Virus record (IMG/VR): IMGVR_UViG_3300034102_001457
Coordinates: 1 to 64,000 of that record
Strand: one strand, 5' to 3'
DNA length: 64,000 bases
Origin: a virus
Made by a program: the position numbers and the translations under genes. Numbering within the stretch: the first letter of the stretch is position 1; each line of letters starts with the position of its first letter. This document shows positions 76 through 5,318 of this stretch, in pieces. The notes beneath the pieces were generated by a model. It was not told the origin of the DNA, did not search any database, and was given only the letters and a program-made list of their open reading frames with translations.

Positions 76-97
76 AGTATAGCAGGGGGGTCTGACA
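76..97 (-). promoter_or_regulatory. Early promoter P1 of the TGTCRG family
   Basis: On the minus strand TGTCAG (97-92) is followed after exactly 10 bases by TATACT (81-76), preceded by TGC (extended -10). The leader contains CAACGAAAGG before the ATG at 47. A hairpin CCACC-TTCG-GGTGG (114-101) directly abuts the upstream element and may end the transcript arriving from the right. No TGTGA-N6-TCACA box is seen upstream. Confidence 0.7.
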
Positions 98-367: not shown

Positions 368-389
368 ATTATAGCGGATACCACCGACA
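368..389 (-). promoter_or_regulatory. Early promoter P2 of the TGTCRG family
   Basis: TGTCGG (389-384), 10 bases, TATAAT (373-368) on the minus strand. Predicted transcription start about 361. A hairpin of five C:G pairs (CCCCC...GGGGG, about 412-391) lies immediately upstream, as at P1. The CRP-like box 418-433 is centred at about -64.5. Confidence 0.8.
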
Positions 390-417: not shown

Positions 418-433
418 TGTGATACTAGTCACA
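418..433. promoter_or_regulatory. CRP/GlxR-type operator upstream of P2
   Basis: TGTGATACTAGTCACA, a perfect TGTGA-N6-TCACA inverted repeat. It overlaps the stop codon of the gene ending at 425 and is centred about 64.5 bases upstream of the predicted P2 start. The motif is that of the CRP/FNR family (GlxR in actinobacteria); binding here is inferred. Confidence 0.65.
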
Positions 434-694
434 CTCAGGTAGCCAAAATCCTAAGTGGTGTTGGTCAATAATAGCGGAGGCAGGTGCTGTATCTAATCCT
501 TTATAAGATACGCCTTCAGGCATCTTTATCTGTCGATCAAAATCCTCATCATAGTATGCGTCAATAGCATCTATGCAAGGTTGCACCATAGAAAGTGGAA
601 CGGGTGGGTAATGATTACCCTGTAAGTGATAGGCTAATTGTGTTTCTAAATCTAACACGCTATCCTGAATACCTAGTGCAGTTATGCTTCCCAT
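425..694 (-). CDS. Small early protein, 89 aa, unknown function
   Basis: Second gene of the P3 transcription unit, starting 2 bases after the stop of the 697-921 gene, so the two are probably translationally coupled. The product (MGSITALGIQDSVLDLETQL at its start) is acidic, without membrane segments or cysteine clusters, and contains a helical stretch followed by IDAIDAYYDEDFDRQIKMP. I do not recognise the family. Its stop codon lies inside the operator of the next promoter, P2. Confidence 0.75.
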   Translation of the reverse strand: MGSITALGIQDSVLDLETQLAYHLQGNHYPPVPLSMVQPCIDAIDAYYDEDFDRQIKMPEGVSYKGLDTAPASAIIDQHHLGFWLPECD

Positions 695-696
695 TG

Positions 697-921
697 TTAG
701 TTACCTTCCTTGATAGTCATTTCAGCCCAAGTGTTAAACTCATTAGCAGTTTTTAATACATTAGATTGAGCAAGGGCGTGTAGCGTTGCTTCCTTGCACA
801 TCTCTGTCATTGTTTTTTCATCAAGAGCAATTAAGCGTGGCAATAAGTTTGCAGGGATAGTATCAAGGTTAATGATAGCCTCGAAAGTTATTGTGTGTGG
901 AACTTTGATTAGATTAGACAT
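697..921 (-). CDS. Small early protein, 74 aa, unknown function
   Basis: First gene behind promoter P3; ATG at 921 preceded by CGAAAGGTAACAA. The product begins MSNLIKVPHTITFEAIINLD and is predicted to have a beta segment followed by two helices (LLPRLIALDEKTMTEMCKEA, then ATLHALAQSNVLKTA). It is probably a phage takeover or accessory protein, judged only from its place in the early region; no family is recognised. Confidence 0.75.
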   Translation of the reverse strand: MSNLIKVPHTITFEAIINLDTIPANLLPRLIALDEKTMTEMCKEATLHALAQSNVLKTANEFNTWAEMTIKEGN

Positions 922-950
922 TTGTTACCTTTCGTTGTTGGAATAAGAGT

Positions 951-972
951 ATTTTAGCATACCCCACTGACA
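951..972 (-). promoter_or_regulatory. Early promoter P3 of the TGTCRG family
   Basis: TGTCAG (972-967), 10 bases ending in TGC, TAAAAT (956-951) on the minus strand. Predicted start about 944. The CRP-like box 1001-1016 is centred at about -64.5, the same distance as at P2. Confidence 0.75.
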
Positions 973-1000
973 TTACCTAATCTATTCCCCGCATAAGCCT

Positions 1001-1016
1001 TGTGATAAATCTCACA
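1001..1016. promoter_or_regulatory. CRP/GlxR-type operator upstream of P3
   Basis: TGTGATAAATCTCACA, a perfect TGTGA-N6-TCACA repeat in the intergenic space right of P3, centred about 64.5 bases upstream of the predicted start. Confidence 0.65.
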
Positions 1017-1029
1017 AATTTCCAGGGTT

Positions 1030-1059
1030 TGTGGATAACTCCCGTAAACCTGTGGATAA
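1030..1059 (+). other. Pair of DnaA-box sequences
   Basis: TGTGGATAA occurs at 1030-1038 and again at 1051-1059, in the same orientation and 21 bases apart (two helical turns). Both match the bacterial DnaA-box consensus TTATNCACA on the other strand. They lie in the 124-base gap between P3's operator and the gene ending at 1081. They may mark a replication origin or a DnaA-responsive control site; neither is proven. Confidence 0.5.
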
Positions 1060-1060
1060 C

Positions 1061-1079
1061 CCCGTAGTATTGCGGGCCT
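1061..1079 (-). terminator. GCCCGCA-type 3' hairpin
   Basis: On the minus strand, right after the stop of the 1081-1203 gene, GGCCCGCA is followed by TACGGG, giving a short CCCG/CGGG stem. Similar GCCCGCA hairpins follow other leftward genes at 2043-2066 and 3499-3522. There is no T-run, so it may be an end-protecting or attenuating structure rather than a classical terminator. Confidence 0.35.
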
Positions 1080-1080
1080 T

Positions 1081-1203
1081 TTATTCCTCCTGGCCCCATA
1101 TGTCGGGATCTATTTCTGCTAAGTACTCTTTAGCAGCTTTTTTCTGATCTTGATCACCAACAACAGAATTTATTAATGCATTAAAATAATTAAGCTCCGC
1201 CAT
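1081..1203 (-). CDS. Small early protein, 40 aa
   Basis: ATG at 1203-1201, stop TAA 1083-1081. The product reads MAELNYFNALINSVVGDQDQ, then KKAAKEYLAEIDPDIWGQEE. A good ribosome-binding site, AAGGAGA, lies 5 bases before the ATG. It is the second gene behind P4, 12 bases after the GP88-family gene. It is acidic and helical, with no recognised family. Confidence 0.65.
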   Translation of the reverse strand: MAELNYFNALINSVVGDQDQKKAAKEYLAEIDPDIWGQEE

Positions 1204-1215
1204 TTTTATTTCTCC

Positions 1216-1935
1216 TTATTTTTTAGTTGCGCTAAATCTAATATCTGCTTTACCATAAACACATAACCCACACGATACACACGCAGAACCTGCATTGCTA
1301 ATTAGTGGAATTGATTTCATATTTTCAGGGCACTTAGCACCAGGCTTGCCCGTCAATTCTTTCATTGTGCTTTCGGTGACGGCGAATGTCTTCCCTAAAT
1401 ATGCAAGGCGAATTCCCTCATTTACTTTTAGTTCGTGGCCGATTTCTTTATTCTCATCGTCGGTAGAATAGTAAAGAGATAAATTAGATACATCCTTTAG
1501 AATAAGCGCTGCAGACTTTACACGTGTGTAAACCCAGAATTGAACATCGGTGTGCTCATTGATTACATTCTTCCAGGCATAAGTATAGAAATCATTGAAG
1601 AAATCTCCGTCCCAGTGGATACGGAATAGCATAGGAGCGTCTTTCTTTACACAATCAGCCTTGAAATCAATAATCATTTCATTTAGCAATTGATACATTG
1701 TTTCCATATCGGCATTGCGTAGCAATTCCCAATTGTGTAGCAGATTAGTTTTTACTCCCTTGAAGAGTTTTTCCAATTTGCCTGCATAGCAAACAGTCTC
1801 GCAGATAGACGTAGCGCCAGGACATGAGAAATCTTTTCCTGCGGGTAATCCGAACGTGTTAGCAATTGCGGCTTGCTTTCCATTTTTTGTGACAAGGTTA
1901 GCCACCTTTCTATCATTAGAGCGTTTCAATTTCAT
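1216..1935 (-). CDS. GP88-family cysteine-rich phage protein
   Basis: The product is 239 aa when started at ATG 1935-1933, which follows the leader CGAAAGGCCAACTA of promoter P4; the longer frame to 1998 would start upstream of the promoter and is rejected. Residues 38-51 hold CPGATSICETVCYA, the signature of the Gene-product-88 family of actinobacteriophages, and the C-terminus holds a second cluster, CVSCGLC (219-225). These cysteines could bind a metal or an iron-sulfur cluster; that is inference. The middle part (for example FRIHWDGDFF) is also conserved in the family as I remember it. The biochemical function of GP88 is not known to me. Confidence 0.75.
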   Translation of the reverse strand: MKLKRSNDRKVANLVTKNGKQAAIANTFGLPAGKDFSCPGATSICETVCYAGKLEKLFKGVKTNLLHNWELLRNADMETMYQLLNEMIIDFKADCVKKDAPMLFRIHWDGDFFNDFYTYAWKNVINEHTDVQFWVYTRVKSAALILKDVSNLSLYYSTDDENKEIGHELKVNEGIRLAYLGKTFAVTESTMKELTGKPGAKCPENMKSIPLISNAGSACVSCGLCVYGKADIRFSATKK

Positions 1936-1963
1936 TAGTTGGCCTTTCGTTGGTAAGGTTGTA

Positions 1964-1985
1964 AGTATAGCAGAATGGACCGACA
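1964..1985 (-). promoter_or_regulatory. Early promoter P4 of the TGTCRG family
   Basis: TGTCGG (1985-1980), 10 bases ending TGC, TATACT (1969-1964) on the minus strand; predicted start about 1957. Upstream, GGTGTTTTAGATCACA (2013-2028) keeps only the right half of the CRP-like box; its centre would be at about -63.5, in register with the perfect boxes of P2 and P3. Confidence 0.75.
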
Positions 1986-2028
1986 TTTTACGCAACACGC
2001 TGCAAATTCCAGGGTGTTTTAGATCACA

Positions 2029-2066
2029 GTCGTAACGACACGCCCGACTCCGCAGCTCTGCGGGCT
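2029..2066. repeat. Intergenic repeat with palindrome and hairpin, copy 1
   Basis: Starts with the palindrome GTCGTAACGAC (2029-2039), continues ACGCCCGACTCC, and ends with the perfect hairpin CCGCAG-CT-CTGCGG (2050-2063). The first 27 bases are identical to 3485-3511. On the minus strand it reads GCCCGCA... and follows the leftward gene ending at 2089, so it probably forms the 3' end of that transcript or a small structured RNA. Confidence 0.6.
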
Positions 2067-2088
2067 TTCGAACACCTGTTCTAATTAA

Positions 2089-2220
2089 TTATTGATCGAA
2101 TTTATTTTTATGTTTTATTTTGCGTGTGTATTTTTTTTTATTGCGAACAGGTTGCGCCGCATTACTGCGACGCAATTCCTGAATGCGTTTTACTTTATCT
2201 TGAAGAGAAGTTAGGAACAT
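2089..2220 (-). CDS. Very basic 43-aa early protein
   Basis: ATG 2220-2218, stop TAA 2091-2089; overlaps the end of the upstream gene by 26 bases. The product begins MFLTSLQDKVKRIQELRRSN and its C-terminal half is strongly basic (NKKKYTRKIKHKNKFDQ), suggesting nucleic-acid or ribosome binding, but no family is recognised. It is last in the P5 unit and followed by the palindrome/hairpin repeat. Its codon pattern is extremely AT-rich at the 3' end, so a chance frame cannot be fully excluded. Confidence 0.5.
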   Translation of the reverse strand: MFLTSLQDKVKRIQELRRSNAAQPVRNKKKYTRKIKHKNKFDQ

Positions 2221-2386
2221 TATACCCACTCGCTTCGTGAAATCGTTTTACATCAAATCGCTCATTATCTTTCGCAAACATTTCAGCGAAATCATTTACA
2301 ATTTTAGAAAATACAGCAGGGTGAGTTTTGTTGCTAGCATACTTTAGAATTTCTGCGGTTGCTATGTAGTCTTTTCTAGTCATCAT
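2195..2386 (-). CDS. Small conserved-looking phage protein, 63 aa
   Basis: The start is placed at ATG 2386-2384 because it overlaps the TGA of the upstream gene as ATGA, a coupling arrangement; GAGGT lies about 9 bases upstream. The product begins MMTRKDYIATAEILKYASNK. RKDY-x-A-x-A-E-I-L resembles the start of many short phage proteins of unknown function. The rest is mostly helical (IVNDFAEMFAKDNERFDVKR). There is no enzymatic motif. Confidence 0.7.
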   Translation of the reverse strand: MMTRKDYIATAEILKYASNKTHPAVFSKIVNDFAEMFAKDNERFDVKRFHEASGYNVPNFSSR

Positions 2387-2586
2387 TTTACTACGACCTC
2401 TCCTGTGCGATAAAATAGTTTTGTATAGCATTTGCCAGTTGGTGTAAATAAATTTACAGTTGAGTATTCATTAGCAGAACCCCAATCGGTAAAACGGAAA
2501 AAGTTTTCCCACGCACCAAATTCATTTTCGTATTCGGCAGACCAGTGGGGGGCGTTGCTATCATAGGCGCAAGTTAGTTTATACAT
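2383..2586 (-). CDS. Small early protein, 67 aa, aromatic-rich
   Basis: First gene behind promoter P5 (leader AACGAAAGGGAAACTA before ATG 2586). The product begins MYKLTCAYDSNAPHWSAEYE and is rich in Trp, Phe and Tyr with alternating beta-like pattern (ENFFRFTDWGS, KCYTKLFYRTGEVVVK). It has no recognised family. Its stop overlaps the next start by 4 bases. Confidence 0.75.
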   Translation of the reverse strand: MYKLTCAYDSNAPHWSAEYENEFGAWENFFRFTDWGSANEYSTVNLFTPTGKCYTKLFYRTGEVVVK

Positions 2587-2704
2587 TAGTTTCCCTTTCG
2601 TTAGTTATACATTTACATTGTGTTATTACTATTGTATCAGTTGCCACCGACACAATAGCGAGAGTATCGCAATTATCGCAAATCCACATTTCAGCAATTT
2701 TCAT
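2579..2704 (-). CDS. Mini zinc-ribbon-like protein, 41 aa, overlapping promoter P5
   Basis: ATG 2704-2702 follows GGAGAATAAATAA, a good ribosome-binding site and spacing; stop TAA 2581-2579. The product contains WICDNCDTLAIV and later QCKC, so four cysteines in CxxC and CxC pairs suggest metal binding. The frame reads through promoter P5 (2631-2652) and past the start codon of the next gene. Either promoter and gene share DNA, or the C-terminal half is a chance frame; the ribosome-binding site and cysteine pairs favour a real gene. Confidence 0.45.
   Translation of the reverse strand: MKIAEMWICDNCDTLAIVSVATDTIVITQCKCITNERETNV
2631..2652 (-). promoter_or_regulatory. Early promoter P5 of the TGTCRG family
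   Basis: TGTCGG (2652-2647), 10 bases, TACAAT (2636-2631) on the minus strand; predicted start about 2624. It is embedded in the 41-codon frame 2579-2704. No CRP-like box is seen upstream. Confidence 0.7.
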
Positions 2705-2851
2705 TTATTTATTCTCCTGAAAAAAACTGAGCGGATTACATTGGCAAGCCTCTACATCATAATTATTTTCATCTCCGTAGTATAGCCAGCCATTTCCGTA
2801 GCAGGTATCACACTCTAAAATCTGAGTGTATAATTCTTTCATTCTACCCAT
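2705..2851 (-). CDS. Mini zinc-finger-like protein, 48 aa
   Basis: ATG 2851-2849, stop TAA 2707-2705, one base before the next ATG. The product has CDTCYGNGWLYYGDE and then ACQC: a CxxCxGxGW turn as in DnaJ-type zinc fingers, paired with a CxC. Metal binding is likely; the partner is unknown. It follows promoter P6 with the leader AACGAAAGGGAAAACCTAA. Confidence 0.65.
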   Translation of the reverse strand: MGRMKELYTQILECDTCYGNGWLYYGDENNYDVEACQCNPLSFFQENK

Positions 2852-2969
2852 TTAGGTTTTCCCTTTCGTTTGTTGATTTTGTAATTGTAGCAGATAGCAC
2901 TGACAAGGCTTGCGCCTTGCTTGCCTCACGTTGTGCGATAACGTGTTGTTTGAATTCGTCTAAGTTCAT
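2844..2969 (-). CDS. Small early protein, 41 aa, overlapping promoter P6
   Basis: ATG 2969-2967 overlaps the upstream stop as ATGA; stop TAG 2846-2844. The product begins MNLDEFKQHVIAQREASKAQ, a charged helix, and ends STNERENLNG. Its last 20 codons are the DNA of promoter P6 and its leader, just as the 2579-2704 frame ends ITNERETNV over the leader of P5. The N-terminal helix looks real; the C-terminal part may be a by-product of the promoter. Confidence 0.5.
   Translation of the reverse strand: MNLDEFKQHVIAQREASKAQALSVLSATITKSTNERENLNG
2884..2905 (-). promoter_or_regulatory. Early promoter P6 of the TGTCRG family
   Basis: TGTCAG (2905-2900), 10 bases ending TGC, TACAAT (2889-2884) on the minus strand; predicted start about 2877. 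It is embedded in the frame 2844-2969, and no CRP-like box is seen upstream. Confidence 0.7.
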
Positions 2970-3091
2970 TCGAACGCACCTTCCTCTAATAATCCTAATT
3001 CGATGTTGAATAATTCATCGGGTGTTGCTTCGGATAAATCTACCCAGCCAGCACCCTCGTTGTCCATTCGGAAAATTTCGATGTATCCCAT
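2966..3091 (-). CDS. Small acidic early protein, 41 aa
   Basis: ATG 3091-3089, stop TGA 2968-2966, starting 2 bases after the stop of the 3094-3300 gene. The product begins MGYIEIFRMDNEGAGWVDLS and continues as an acidic helix (DELFNIELGLLEEGAFE). Unknown function. It is coupled to both neighbours (2-base gap upstream, ATGA overlap downstream). Confidence 0.65.
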   Translation of the reverse strand: MGYIEIFRMDNEGAGWVDLSEATPDELFNIELGLLEEGAFE

Positions 3092-3093
3092 TA

Positions 3094-3300
3094 TTATTCA
3101 CCAACCTTTACTGCGATTGTTGCGAATTTATTTCGCAGACCGCCCGCATTTATTTCGATTAGATACGCTTCAGTTTTTTCACCATACCAAATTTCTGGGC
3201 GGTGTTCGGCAGATACAATTTCGCCAGAAAAGTGGCGATTGCGTGAGCGATAGTTTTTCCCTACAAGTAGGCTTTCGATTGTGTATAGTTTGGTAGCCAT
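3094..3300 (-). CDS. Small early protein, 68 aa
   Basis: First gene behind promoter P7; the leader has AACGAAAGAAGGTCTGCCA before ATG 3300. The product begins MATKLYTIESLLVGKNYRSR and is basic in the middle, with beta-rich ends (EAYLIEINAGGL, FATIAVKVGE). It could be a small beta-barrel. Its family is not recognised. Confidence 0.75.
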   Translation of the reverse strand: MATKLYTIESLLVGKNYRSRNRHFSGEIVSAEHRPEIWYGEKTEAYLIEINAGGLRNKFATIAVKVGE

Positions 3301-3335
3301 TGGCAGACCTTCTTTCGTTTGTTGTTATGTATGGA

Positions 3336-3357
3336 ATTATACACGAACCCACTGACA
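3336..3357 (-). promoter_or_regulatory. Early promoter P7 of the TGTCRG family
   Basis: TGTCAG (3357-3352), 10 bases, TATAAT (3341-3336) on the minus strand; predicted start about 3329. The CRP-like box 3406-3421 is centred at about -84.5, 20 bases (two turns) further out than at P2 and P3. Confidence 0.8.
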
Positions 3358-3405
3358 TTTTCACATTACTAGCCAGTAAATCCAAATAGTGAGACGCTCA
3401 AGCCG

Positions 3406-3421
3406 TGTGATACTAATCACA
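3406..3421. promoter_or_regulatory. CRP/GlxR-type operator upstream of P7
   Basis: TGTGATACTAATCACA, a perfect TGTGA-N6-TCACA repeat, differing from the P2 box at one spacer base. Centre at about -84.5 from P7. Confidence 0.65.
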
Positions 3422-3431
3422 TCAAAATGTC

Positions 3432-3551
3432 CGATTTGTCTGTCAAATCGACACGCCGTAGAATTCAGGGATTTTTATAACAATGTCGTAACGACACGCC
3501 CGACTCCGCAGTAGTTGCGGGCCAGCTTGATTTTGTCAAGCCGACACGCCG
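3432..3551. repeat. Structured intergenic region with three palindrome-CGACACGCC modules
   Basis: Three hairpin-forming palindromes are each followed directly by (C)GACACGCC: GATTTG-TCTGT-CAAATC (3432-3448), GTCGTAACGAC (3485-3495, start of the 27-base repeat shared with 2029-2055) and GCTTGA-TTTTG-TCAAGC (3524-3540). Between the last two lies the hairpin CCGCA-GTAGT-TGCGG (3506-3520). The 3301-3559 gap has no gene; besides P7 and its operator it holds only this block. It lies just 3' of the leftward gene ending at 3560, so it could form a structured 3' end or a small RNA. Confidence 0.55.
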
Positions 3552-3559
3552 TTATTTAT

Positions 3560-3757
3560 TTATTCATTTTCTAATTCCGCTAAATAATCTTCGTGTTCTA
3601 CTAAACCAATCGCAAACGCAACGGGATCGCAACACTCTAAGATTTCGGCGGGTGTAAAAGTTGAGTAACCAATTTTTACAGTTGGATAAATGTCATTTAG
3701 TAAATCTATAAAACTTTCTTTGATTTCTAAATCTTTTTCTAATTGTGATTTACTCAT
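3560..3757 (-). CDS. Small acidic early protein, 65 aa
   Basis: ATG 3757, overlapping the end of the upstream gene by 8 bases. The product begins MSKSQLEKDLEIKESFIDLL and looks all-helical and acidic, ending EHEDYLAELENE; it has a CC pair (EILECCDP). It resembles generic short phage proteins but I cannot name a family. It is the last gene of the unit behind P8 or P9. Confidence 0.7.
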   Translation of the reverse strand: MSKSQLEKDLEIKESFIDLLNDIYPTVKIGYSTFTPAEILECCDPVAFAIGLVEHEDYLAELENE

Positions 3758-3863
3758 TTAGTCCCCCATTTTTTATGTCTTTGATTACTGCGATTAGTAG
3801 CGGGATAGTTACGCCCGCTAGTAGTAATTGGACGGCGGTAGTTAGTAAGCGATTAGTAGTCAT
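3750..3863 (-). CDS. Single-pass membrane mini-protein, 37 aa
   Basis: ATG 3863-3861, stop TAA 3752-3750, overlapping both neighbours. The product is MTTNRLLTTAVQ followed by a hydrophobic segment LLLAGVTIPLLIAVI and a polar tail KDIKNGGLNE: one membrane span with a short cytoplasmic tail. It may alter the host envelope early in infection; that is inferred from position only. Confidence 0.6.
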   Translation of the reverse strand: MTTNRLLTTAVQLLLAGVTIPLLIAVIKDIKNGGLNE

Positions 3864-4018
3864 TACTTATTCTTCTTTCTCTTGTAAATCTTATAGGCGA
3901 TTAGTAGGGCGGTAGTAATTAGGATAGTGTGCCAAGGTAAGTAGATAGCCCCTAAGAAACTATCAAACTCTAATCCGTAGTCGCTAGTTATGTATAACTC
4001 AAATCCGTTTATAGTCAT
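3863..4018 (-). CDS. Membrane mini-protein with basic tail, 51 aa
   Basis: ATG 4018-4016, stop TAA 3865-3863, overlapping the next ATG (TAATG). The N-terminal 28 residues are polar and acidic (MTINGFELYITSDYGLEFDS), followed by one membrane span (about 31-44, TILITTALLIAYKI) and a strongly basic end YKRKKNK, which predicts the C-terminus in the cytoplasm. Function unknown. Confidence 0.6.
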   Translation of the reverse strand: MTINGFELYITSDYGLEFDSFLGAIYLPWHTILITTALLIAYKIYKRKKNK

Positions 4019-4020
4019 TA

Positions 4021-4185
4021 TTAGTTATCCCAATCTAATGTTAGTGCGGACATTTCTTCTTCTTCGTATTCGCTAAGGCGCAAATCTAAGCCCTCTGCTA
4101 GTGCCTTGTTATAGGCTTCTTCTTCTTCTAGATAGACATAAGCGTCTGCTACATCTGCCTGAATAGTATCCCATTTAGTCATCAT
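4021..4185 (-). CDS. Very acidic early protein, 54 aa
   Basis: ATG 4185-4183 (a second ATG follows at once), stop TAA 4023-4021. The product begins MMTKWDTIQADVADAYVYLE and has two glutamate runs (YLEEEEAYN and YEEEEMSA). Strong negative charge recalls DNA-mimic or RNA-polymerase-binding phage proteins, but there is no sequence evidence for either. GAGGTAAAGTA precedes the start. Confidence 0.6.
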   Translation of the reverse strand: MMTKWDTIQADVADAYVYLEEEEAYNKALAEGLDLRLSEYEEEEMSALTLDWDN

Positions 4186-4337
4186 TACTTTACCTCTACT
4201 TCTCTAATGTTGTAAGTGAAACCCTTACCTAGTTTTTCTAATTCTTTTATTACGGCTAAGATTTCTTCGGGCTTGTTAGCCTTTTGATTTACGGCTAATA
4301 GTTGAGAGCCTTGCCATAGTGTATAAGTGATAGTCAT
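4185..4337 (-). CDS. Small early protein, 50 aa
   Basis: First gene behind promoter P8; ATG 4337-4335, stop TAA overlapping the next ATG (TAATG). The product begins MTITYTLWQGSQLLAVNQKA, then a charged helix (EEILAVIKELEKLGKG) and a beta-like end (FTYNIREVEVK): a small alpha/beta protein without recognised family. The leader carries AACGAAAGAAGAACAGATA. Confidence 0.65.
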   Translation of the reverse strand: MTITYTLWQGSQLLAVNQKANKPEEILAVIKELEKLGKGFTYNIREVEVK

Positions 4338-4372
4338 TATCTGTTCTTCTTTCGTTAGTAGTTATAGTAGGA

Positions 4373-4394
4373 ATTGTAGCGCATAGCGCCGACA
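4373..4394 (-). promoter_or_regulatory. Early promoter P8 of the TGTCRG family
   Basis: TGTCGG (4394-4389), 10 bases, TACAAT (4378-4373) on the minus strand; predicted start about 4366. The CRP-like box 4424-4439 is centred at about -65.5. A CGACACGCC element (4403-4411) and a CGCC-GTTA-GGCG hairpin lie in between. Confidence 0.75.
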
Positions 4395-4412
4395 TTGTAT
4401 AGCGACACGCCG

Positions 4413-4517
4413 TTAGGCGTTAGTGTGATTATGGTCACACACGGACTCGATTTCGTGTCCGAACTCCTCTACGAGTTCCTCGTAGATTTCGTCCATATAA
4501 TCAAGATAATCGTTCAT
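4413..4517 (-). CDS. Small acidic early protein, 34 aa
   Basis: ATG 4517-4515, stop TAA 4415-4413, 4 bases after the preceding gene's stop; GGGAG lies upstream. The product begins MNDYLDYMDEIYEELVEEFG and ends VCDHNHTNA. The last codons coincide with the CRP-like operator of P8, so the C-terminal residues may be dictated by the DNA site. Function unknown. Confidence 0.55.
   Translation of the reverse strand: MNDYLDYMDEIYEELVEEFGHEIESVCDHNHTNA
4424..4439. promoter_or_regulatory. CRP/GlxR-type operator upstream of P8
   Basis: TGTGATTATGGTCACA, a perfect TGTGA-N6-TCACA repeat inside the 3' end of the 4413-4517 gene; centre at about -65.5 from P8. Confidence 0.65.
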
Positions 4518-4521
4518 TAGA

Positions 4522-4728
4522 TTACTCCCAACTTCTAGTAGTAGCATAAACCTTGCGAGTGCTAGGCTTGTAATTTTCTAACTCTCTTAGATTAGTTTCT
4601 AAGATAGTGCCTCTTAGGGCTAGTAGGTCAAGATACTCATTAGCATCTTGTTCGGTATTCATTAGAACACCTAAGCAAGTAGAAAACTCGGTGTCCGAGT
4701 ATTGGACTTTATAACTTAGTGAAAACAT
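4522..4728 (-). CDS. Small early protein, 68 aa
   Basis: First gene behind promoter P9; leader GAAAGGAAAACAAA before ATG 4728. The product begins MFSLSYKVQYSDTEFSTCLG, followed by a long helix (EQDANEYLDLLALRGTILET) and a basic end. Leucine is written mainly CTA and the DNA is rich in CTAG, like the whole 3750-4728 stretch. Function unknown. Confidence 0.7.
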   Translation of the reverse strand: MFSLSYKVQYSDTEFSTCLGVLMNTEQDANEYLDLLALRGTILETNLRELENYKPSTRKVYATTRSWE

Positions 4729-4779
4729 TTTGTTTTCCTTTCTTTATCAAGAACCTTTCTTGATTTTCTTTATAGTATA

Positions 4780-4801
4780 ACTCTAGCAGGGGGGACTGAC
4801 A
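4780..4801 (-). promoter_or_regulatory. Early promoter P9 of the TGTCRG family
   Basis: TGTCAG (4801-4796), 10 bases ending TGC, TAGAGT (4785-4780) on the minus strand, the weakest -10 of the family; TATACT (4779-4774) six bases further is an alternative. With the in-register -10 the CRP-like box 4840-4855 is centred at about -74.5. Confidence 0.65.
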
Positions 4802-4839
4802 AAAAGGGGGGTTACTGGCAAGTATTCTCAAACTATTTT

Positions 4840-4855
4840 TGTGATTAGCATCACA
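4840..4855. promoter_or_regulatory. CRP/GlxR-type operator upstream of P9
   Basis: TGTGATTAGCATCACA, a perfect TGTGA-N6-TCACA repeat in the 239-base gap 4729-4967. The rest of that gap is AT-rich and shows no gene. Confidence 0.65.
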
Positions 4856-4967: not shown

Positions 4968-5318
4968 CTAGTCGACTGAGATTTTATTCCTAAGTTTTTT
5001 TCTATACGAAGTATCGACGGGTGCATACCTAGGATGTTTCTTTGGCTCATTTGTTCTATTACCTTTAGTAAGGTTGCAGATACCGTGAGAAGGCTTTACG
5101 TTTATAAGCTCGTCAGATCCTCCTTTGGTTAAAGGGATTACATGATCTAGCTGTAGTCCATACTTCCATCCAGGTACAAAAGCTTGGCGGGGTGCAGAGT
5201 AATCTATCTGCATACCACATATGTGACAATTACCCCCATGTATAATAAAAATTTCATAGAAGGAGTATAGGTGTGGATCCGTATATCTCTCTATGTTTGC
5301 TTTATTGTTTACTGGCAT
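4968..5318 (-). CDS. HNH endonuclease
   Basis: 116 aa. The core has CHICG (31-35), LDHVIPLTKGGSDELINV (57-74) with the HNH Asp-His pair (D58, H59) and the Asn, then HGICNLTKGNR (78-88) with the third motif. The paired cysteines make it a zinc-supported HNH nuclease that would nick or cut DNA. The gene stands alone, divergent from the next cluster. Its ATG follows TAATAT by 6 bases, so the mRNA is probably leaderless. It could be a free-standing homing-type nuclease or serve in packaging; no terminase is nearby to support the latter. Confidence 0.85.
   Translation of the reverse strand: MPVNNKANIERYTDPHLYSFYEIFIIHGGNCHICGMQIDYSAPRQAFVPGWKYGLQLDHVIPLTKGGSDELINVKPSHGICNLTKGNRTNEPKKHPRYAPVDTSYRKKLRNKISVD

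What the first reader, a model, noticed from the sequence alone, without database searches (positions are those of the whole stretch)
418..4855. Five perfect CRP/GlxR-type boxes at helically phased positions upstream of the early promoters
TGTGA-N6-TCACA occurs perfectly at 418-433, 1001-1016, 3406-3421, 4424-4439 and 4840-4855; P4 keeps a half site (2013-2028). Relative to predicted starts the centres lie at about -64.5, -64.5, -84.5, -65.5 and -74.5 (and -63.5 for the half site), i.e. steps of about 10 bases. Class I CRP activation uses just such phased positions. A 10-base exact motif is expected about once per million positions, so five in 5 kb is not chance. The phage early genes may thus be wired to the host cAMP-CRP/GlxR regulator, or to a phage-encoded relative not in this window. 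That would make infection respond to host carbon status.
Basis: partly seen in the sequence, partly recalled or inferred. Interest (0 to 1): 0.8.

Follow-up and report, generated by a model that had tools for sequence, protein, structure and literature searches.

The report
Crp-type boxes phased upstream of phage promoters
A family of freshwater phages that probably infect actinobacteria carries near-perfect binding sites for the host's master regulator Crp at fixed helical distances upstream of a block of its promoters, which suggests that these viruses borrow that host regulator to switch on their genes.

Summary
In detail: five perfect TGTGA-N6-TCACA boxes at the stated coordinates (0.10 expected), the only ones in the 79,857-base record. 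Relatives strengthen it. All 80 retrieved viral loci carry perfect boxes (410 in 1.21 Mb). Of 279 distinct boxes, 276 are followed within 250 bp by a phage core promoter, TGTCR-N11-TAnnnT (no conserved -35). In 725 promoter units, positions centred 42.5/52.5/62.5/72.5 bp (±1) before the -10 hold 212 perfect boxes; half-turn positions 37.5/47.5/67.5/77.5 (±1) hold 1. A secondary cluster at 57.5 (47 boxes) breaks the ladder and is unexplained. Single mismatches mostly spare the GTG/CAC core. No Crp-type HTH was found in 47 phage records. The inferred host order carries a Crp-type protein (58 of 61 genomes), and the box is enriched about 14-fold in other genomes of the class. Best reading: host Crp recruits polymerase in a class-I-like way. 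The carbon-status part is not supported: in the inferred, unproven host order no adenylate cyclase of two families was found and boxes are not enriched. The ladder sits about 3 bp from the E. coli optimum. Nothing has been tested at the bench.

The parts
418..433 (-). perfect Crp-type box, 52.5 bp before the -10 of the promoter at 368-389
368..389 (-). core promoter TGTCGGTGGTATCCGCTATAAT
1001..1016 (-). perfect Crp-type box, 52.5 bp before the -10 of the promoter at 951-972; in the matching cluster of relatives 27 of 31 units have 57.5
951..972 (-). core promoter TGTCAGTGGGGTATGCTAAAAT before the 74-aa ORF 697-921
2013..2028 (-). imperfect box (8 of 10), 51.5 bp before the -10 of the promoter at 1964-1985
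1964..1985 (-). core promoter before the GP88-family gene (likely start 1935, end 1216)
3406..3421 (-). perfect Crp-type box, 72.5 bp before the -10 of the promoter at 3336-3357
3336..3357 (-). core promoter before the 68-aa ORF 3094-3300
4424..4439 (-). perfect Crp-type box, 53.5 bp before the -10 of the promoter at 4373-4394
4373..4394 (-). core promoter TGTCGGCGCTATGCGCTACAAT
4840..4855 (-). perfect Crp-type box, 62.5 bp before the -10 of the promoter at 4780-4801
4780..4801 (-). core promoter before the 68-aa ORF 4522-4728
2631..2652 (-). core promoter of the same type without a box
2884..2905 (-). core promoter of the same type without a box
76..97 (-). core promoter of the same type without a box

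Best explanation
The boxes are operators for the host's own Crp/GlxR-type regulator. A Crp dimer bound at one of a ladder of positions (centres about 10 bp apart, 42 to 73 bp upstream of the -10) lies on one face of the helix and recruits host RNA polymerase to phage promoters that lack a conserved -35 element and mostly have an extended -10, as in class I activation. Shown here: the boxes, their recurrence across the family, their tie to promoters, the phasing, the lack of a detectable phage Crp-type HTH, and a Crp-type protein with the GlxR-like recognition helix in the inferred host order. Inferred: that host Crp binds, that binding activates, that the genes are early, and which host it is. 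Whether cAMP is needed is open, and in the inferred host it may not be.
For: Expected 0.10 per window, 5 seen. 410 boxes in 80 of 80 loci of relatives; 73 boxes against 0 for the reversed pattern in 11 large records. 276 of 279 distinct boxes are followed within 250 bp by the core promoter. In 725 promoter units: 212 perfect and 137 one-mismatch boxes in 8,700 in-phase positions, against 1 and 2 in 8,700 half-turn positions, 57.5 being counted in neither. One vote for each of 74 spacer groups: R = 0.66 at period 10, none of 5,000 uniform draws as high. A collection-wide pattern scan that did not ask for a -10: 216 of 236 distinct matches have TAnnnT at exactly N10, gaps mainly 27-28, 33-34, 37-38 and 47-48; the reversed box gives 5 of 108 and no such clustering; some of these contigs are also among the 80. 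Single mismatches lie outside the GTG/CAC core in 143 of 167. 722 perfect boxes against 53 controls in 181 genomes of the host class not among those drawn for the order. Crp of the order has SRETVNKALADF in the seven read, and the one searched is closest in the PDB to actinobacterial Crp/Fnr-family entries. C. glutamicum GlxR is tabulated as binding TGTGA-N6-TCACA-like sites (PMC5449483, passages seen).
Against: The ladder is about 3 bp further out than the E. coli optima (-61.5, -71.5, -81.5/-82.5; cooperativity factor about 6 at -64.5 against 763 at -61.5; PMC6301791, passages seen), unless starts are nearer the -10 or the polymerase geometry differs. A half-turn cluster at 57.5 bp (47 perfect boxes in 725 units; 8 of 74 spacer groups) does not fit. 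308 of 725 promoter units have no box with 9 or more matches. In the inferred host order boxes are not enriched (9 perfect boxes against 19 controls in 61 genomes, one of the 9 having the sequence of the box on the phage contig L095; with one mismatch 710 against 697 in 41 genomes), and no adenylate cyclase of two families was found. The Streptomyces relative Annadreamy has no perfect box. Host identity is inferred. No binding or expression data.
Confidence: 0.74

Rival explanations
1. The boxes bind a Crp-family regulator encoded by the phage itself (or brought in by the virion).
For: The core promoter element is phage-specific (2 hits in 61 genomes of the inferred host order), so a phage factor may act at these promoters.
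Against: No HTH_Crp_2 (PF13545) match in 47 phage records, among them seven over 100 kb; the same model rings in all 14 control genomes. Several of the records are fragments, and only this one model was tried.
Confidence: 0.04
2. Host Crp binds but represses or delays the promoters, or acts as a timing switch.
For: The half-turn cluster at 57.5 could mark a different mode; Crp represses at some promoters (recalled).
Against: Most boxes lie well upstream of the core promoter, where they cannot block polymerase directly; the phasing and the lack of a conserved -35 fit recruitment.
Confidence: 0.09
3. The boxes are decoys that titrate host Crp during genome replication.
For: 4 to 11 perfect boxes in each of 11 large phage records against 0 or 1 in each of 61 genomes of the inferred host order.
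Against: A sponge needs neither promoters nor phasing; boxes are tied to both.
Confidence: 0.04
4. Another host or phage regulator that reads the same palindrome, not Crp, uses the boxes.
For: In the inferred host order the box is not enriched, so host Crp might not use it there.
Against: The motif, its mismatch pattern and its enrichment in other genomes of the class are those expected of Crp, and Crp of the order keeps the recognition helix of its solved actinobacterial relatives.
Confidence: 0.09

Closest known systems
NtcA boxes in T4-like cyanophages (PMC3037559, passages seen)
   Same: Phages of a dominant aquatic bacterium carry several predicted sites for a host global regulator (NtcA, recalled as a member of the CRP/FNR family) before phage genes; 1-16 sites per genome in all 16 genomes there.
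   Different: GTA-N8-TAC sites, T4-like myoviruses, nitrogen signal, no helical ladder in the passages seen. Here TGTGA-N6-TCACA, distant relatives of a Streptomyces phage (Stanwilliamsviridae), a ladder and a phage-specific core promoter.
Class I CRP-dependent promoters of E. coli (PMC6301791, passages seen)
   Same: Crp-type box upstream of the promoter at positions about 10 bp apart, with few or none at most half-turn positions.
   Different: Ladder about 3 bp further from the -10; additional cluster at a half-turn; no conserved -35 and an extra TGTCRG element 10 bp before the -10.
GlxR/Crp operators of actinobacteria (PMC5449483 and PMC3917453, passages seen)
   Same: Same consensus, and a Crp of the same type in the inferred host order.
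   Different: Sites sit in a phage genome, many of them perfect, while the inferred host order shows no enrichment of them.
Asymmetric operators of mycobacteriophage L1/L5 (PMC1934351, passages seen)
   Same: Their TGTCA core resembles the TGTCRG element in the phage core promoter, and one overlaps an early promoter.
   Different: 13-base GGTGG(A/C)TGTCAAG repressor sites; here the element sits at a fixed 10 bp from the -10 in hundreds of promoters. A resemblance only.

Membership tests
Crp/GlxR operator | TGTGA-N6-TCACA palindrome with conserved GTG...CAC core | tested here: met
   Perfect in five window boxes; in relatives 143 of 167 single mismatches lie outside GTG/CAC.
Crp/GlxR operator | Cognate regulator present in the host | tested here: inconclusive
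   A Crp-type protein in 58 of 61 genomes of the inferred host order, with SRETVNKALADF in the seven read, but the host is inferred, not shown.
Crp/GlxR operator | Bound by Crp | not testable with these tools
   No binding data.
Class I CRP-dependent promoter | Site upstream of the promoter at positions about one helical turn apart | tested here: met
   212 perfect boxes in phase against 1 at four half-turn positions; the 57.5 cluster is an exception.
Class I CRP-dependent promoter | Positions -61.5, -71.5, -82.5 as in E. coli | tested here: not met
   Nominal -54.5, -64.5, -74.5, -84.5 if the -10 starts at -12; starts are not mapped, so the offset may be partly due to the assumed start.
Class I CRP-dependent promoter | Activation through the polymerase alpha C-terminal domain | not testable with these tools
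   Needs in vitro transcription.
Phage promoters wired to a host CRP-family regulator (cyanophage NtcA kind) | Several sites per genome upstream of phage promoters, recurring across the group | tested here: met
Phage promoters wired to a host CRP-family regulator (cyanophage NtcA kind) | The regulator is the host's, not the phage's | tested here: inconclusive
   No HTH_Crp_2 in 47 phage records, some of them fragments; binding by host Crp not shown.

The most novel reading that the evidence does not exclude
In streamlined freshwater actinobacteria that keep Crp but lack the adenylate cyclase families looked for and show no excess of perfect Crp boxes, a whole phage family has turned Crp into a near-constitutive landing platform: a composite phage promoter (phased Crp box, phage-specific TGTCRG element, extended -10) lets the virus outcompete host promoters for polymerase, independent of cAMP, with a second geometry at a half-turn.
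Probability: 0.2. Interest if true: 0.78.

Novelty: new variant of a known kind. Interest (0 to 1): 0.62.

Why it matters
If right, phages of abundant lake bacteria depend on one host regulator to start transcription, so whatever controls Crp in the host would set infection efficiency, and crp would be a host factor for a large virus family. The family also offers hundreds of natural variants of one activator-promoter geometry, including an offset and a half-turn class that the E. coli class I rules do not predict, and it raises the question what Crp does in an order where no adenylate cyclase of two families was found.

Tried and rejected
Phage-encoded Crp relative: rejected for lack of any PF13545 match in 47 records. 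Chance: rejected. Idea that the off-phase boxes were constrained by a coding sequence: the class whose box overlaps the end of an apparent coding frame proved to be in phase (52.5), while the 57.5 class belongs to other promoters; the 57.5 class stays unexplained. WhiA (GACAC, recalled) as reader of the TGTCRG element: not pursued, since the letter before TGTC is A or T in 96% and G in 3%; phage WhiB as its reader is untested. A first grouping by spacer similarity with single linkage merged 486 of 495 units and was replaced by a greedy grouping. Single linkage of downstream sequence also left one large mixed cluster of 218 units, so the differences within the other clusters are only suggestive: 10-bp shifts are common, but so are shifts of 4 to 6 bp. 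Which half site mutates more: no consistent bias (one-mismatch boxes 77 upstream, 60 downstream; two-mismatch boxes 38 and 64). Host boxes with one mismatch: no enrichment. Streptomyces relative Annadreamy: no perfect box, three one-mismatch boxes against six in the reversed control, no core promoter on its plus strand and three matches on the minus strand; PMC5449483 tabulates Streptomyces coelicolor Crp as lacking this consensus (passages seen), so its absence there says little. Paper searches on phage promoters and Crp listed no report of this wiring in actinophages; only the listed top rows were seen (one search matched 10,118 papers), and the library holds open-licence papers only, so this is weak evidence. 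A CTX-phi paper came up; the passages seen concern Crp acting on a host small-RNA promoter. Recalled without a call: that NtcA and Crp share a family, and that Crp can repress.
Full report
What is there. The window belongs to a virus record of 79,857 bases. It holds exactly five perfect TGTGA-N6-TCACA boxes, all in the first 4.9 kb, where 0.10 are expected in 64 kb. One mismatch adds none. Each lies upstream of a leftward core promoter. The core pattern TGTCR-N11-TAnnnT has 12 matches in the record: nine on the minus strand in the first 4.8 kb, and three others (two plus, one minus) that lie elsewhere and look like chance. Five of the nine have a perfect box, one has an 8-of-10 box, three have none.

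Relatives. The gene at 1216-1998 (Pfam GP88, PF17338; PHROG 1392) found 209 relatives in IMG/VR, of which the best 80 loci were kept. All 80 carry at least one perfect box, 410 in 1,206,952 bases. In 11 larger records (85.6 to 115.5 kb) there are 73 perfect boxes and none of the reversed pattern; in 9 of the 11 they lie within one block of 4 to 8 kb, in the other two at both ends of the record. Identical or near-identical contigs are among the 80, so later counts use distinct sequences.

The promoter. Of 279 distinct boxes with enough flank, 276 are followed within 250 bp by TGTCR-N11-TAnnnT. The logo of the plus-strand cores is about AAATGTCAGT(G/C)(G/C)....TGnTATAAT, with no conserved -35 element. 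In the 80 loci there were 1,079 plus-strand and 48 minus-strand matches, against 133 for the reversed sequences on both strands. Extended -10 promoters without a -35 are known, for example galP1 (PMC2613000, passages seen).

Phasing. Let d be the distance from box centre to the first base of the -10. In 725 distinct promoter units (TGTCRG-N10-TAnnnT, plus strand of 81 loci), d = 42.5, 52.5, 62.5 or 72.5 (each ±1; 8,700 positions) holds 212 perfect and 137 one-mismatch boxes; d = 37.5, 47.5, 67.5 or 77.5 (each ±1; 8,700 positions) holds 1 and 2. These half-turn values leave out 57.5, where 47 perfect and 2 one-mismatch boxes lie within ±1. At 69.5-70.5 there are 18 one-mismatch boxes, at 94.5 six perfect ones. 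417 of the 725 units have a box with at least 9 of 10 matches at d 30-110, 308 have none. Units are related by descent, so I grouped 495 units (window, the 81 loci and the stretches) by the sequence between box and core: 74 groups, one vote (the commonest d) each, give 58 in phase (±1), 8 at 57.5-58.5 and 8 elsewhere; mean vector 0.66 at period 10, and none of 5,000 uniform draws reached it.

A second scan. In the 119 stretches read, 216 of 236 distinct matches have TAnnnT exactly 10 bases after TGTCAG, with gaps mainly at 27-28, 33-34, 37-38 and 47-48; in 120 control stretches 5 of 108 do, without clustering. 25 of the 119 stretches had no match with a -10 and look like chance. The scan is not fully independent: at least five of the 80 contigs it listed are among the 80 loci.

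Who binds. No HTH_Crp_2 domain was found in 47 phage records, own record included; some are fragments. WhiB, described as exclusive to Actinobacteriota and used to recognise their phages (PMC10202952, text part 1 of 2 seen), was found in 11 of 17 records searched (16 viral records and the genome bin that holds L086), including all eight viral records over 95 kb but not the window's own. The GP88 gene's relatives among deposited phages are in Mycobacterium (270) and Streptomyces (99) phages, with 3 others, of 372. A glycosyltransferase followed by a ribonucleotide reductase recurs in Streptomyces phage Annadreamy; that the right end carries helicase, primase, DnaE- and RecA-like genes as there is my reading of the translations. 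So the host is very probably an actinobacterium. One 4.7-kb contig in an actinobacterial genome bin (L095, one of 12 loci) pointed to an order of 1.2-2.2 Mb genomes, which I take to be Nanopelagicales from genome size, habitat and GC; no tool named it. Two other near relatives sat in bins of a cyanobacterium and a Phycisphaerae bacterium. Tetranucleotide usage was closest to low-GC members of that order among 15 genomes compared, but one genome drawn from the class ranked third and some members of the order ranked low. In that order 58 of 61 genomes carry a short cNMP-binding protein (open frame 229-281 aa in 57, 157 in one). Of 15 such loci fetched, the script read one strand and showed seven, all with SRETVNKALADF; the one searched against the PDB is closest to actinobacterial Crp/Fnr-family entries.

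Does the host use the box? In 181 genomes of the class not among those drawn for the order there are 722 perfect boxes against 53 reversed controls (some of the 181 may still belong to the order). In the order itself there is no enrichment: 9 perfect boxes against 19 controls in 61 genomes, one of the 9 with the sequence of the box on the phage contig L095, and 710 against 697 with one mismatch in 41 genomes. Class III adenylate cyclase domains were found in 0 of 41 and CYTH domains in 0 of 21; other cyclase classes were not searched. The phage core promoter is absent there too (2 hits in 61 genomes, controls 4). Either Crp in this order works without cAMP and on degenerate sites, or the true host is another actinobacterium. 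The carbon-status reading cannot be upheld at present.

Mechanism. The most economical account is recruitment of host polymerase by host Crp at extended -10 promoters without a -35. In E. coli the class I optima are -61.5, -71.5 and -81.5/-82.5, and -66.5 is inert (PMC6301791, passages seen); the phage ladder is nominally -54.5, -64.5, -74.5, -84.5. The 3-bp offset may reflect the assumed start, actinobacterial polymerase geometry, or contact with a factor at TGTCRG. The 57.5 cluster fits none of these yet.

Place among known things. Host-regulator sites in phage promoters are known from cyanophages (NtcA; PMC3037559, passages seen). This case differs in regulator, phage lineage, phasing and composite core, hence a new variant of a known kind.

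Noticed in passing
core promoters, e.g. 368-389, 951-972, 3336-3357, 4780-4801: A phage-specific element TGTCRG sits exactly 10 bp before the -10 in hundreds of promoters of the family and is practically absent from the inferred host order. Its reader is unknown.
   Followed up: partly
1001-1016 and relatives (clusters 2 and 5): A secondary class of boxes at 57.5 bp, half a turn off the main ladder, commonest at the promoter that follows the GP88 gene (27 of 31 units of that cluster) and in one other cluster (16 of 26); nearly all of these boxes are perfect.
   Followed up: partly
order of G047: A Crp-type protein is conserved in the inferred host order although no class III adenylate cyclase or CYTH domain was found and near-perfect boxes are not enriched.
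   Followed up: partly
1216-1998: The GP88-family ORF is listed from a GTG at 1998, but it probably starts at the ATG at 1935 (residue 22, where unbroken conservation begins); the stretch before it is the promoter itself, whose letters mimic a conserved N-terminus.
   Followed up: partly
L028 6134/6157, L062 8393/8416, L071 7275/7298 and others: Several relatives have two perfect boxes 23 bp apart before one promoter.
   Followed up: no
G041 (record of L079): Three boxes at 448, 1159 and 2371 recur at 109190, 109901 and 111113 with the same spacing, which suggests a terminal repeat of a few kilobases.
   Followed up: no
G087:C23:4420-4435: One of the few perfect boxes in the inferred host order lies about 1.5 kb from that genome's crp-type gene (G087:C23:2722-2964).
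   Followed up: no
about 2029-2065 and 3484-3520: A repeated stretch with CGTAACGACACGCCCGACTCCGCAG, followed by a G+C-rich inverted repeat, lies between transcription units; it may be a terminator (read).
   Followed up: no
4968-5318: HNH endonuclease gene at the right end of this promoter block.
   Followed up: no
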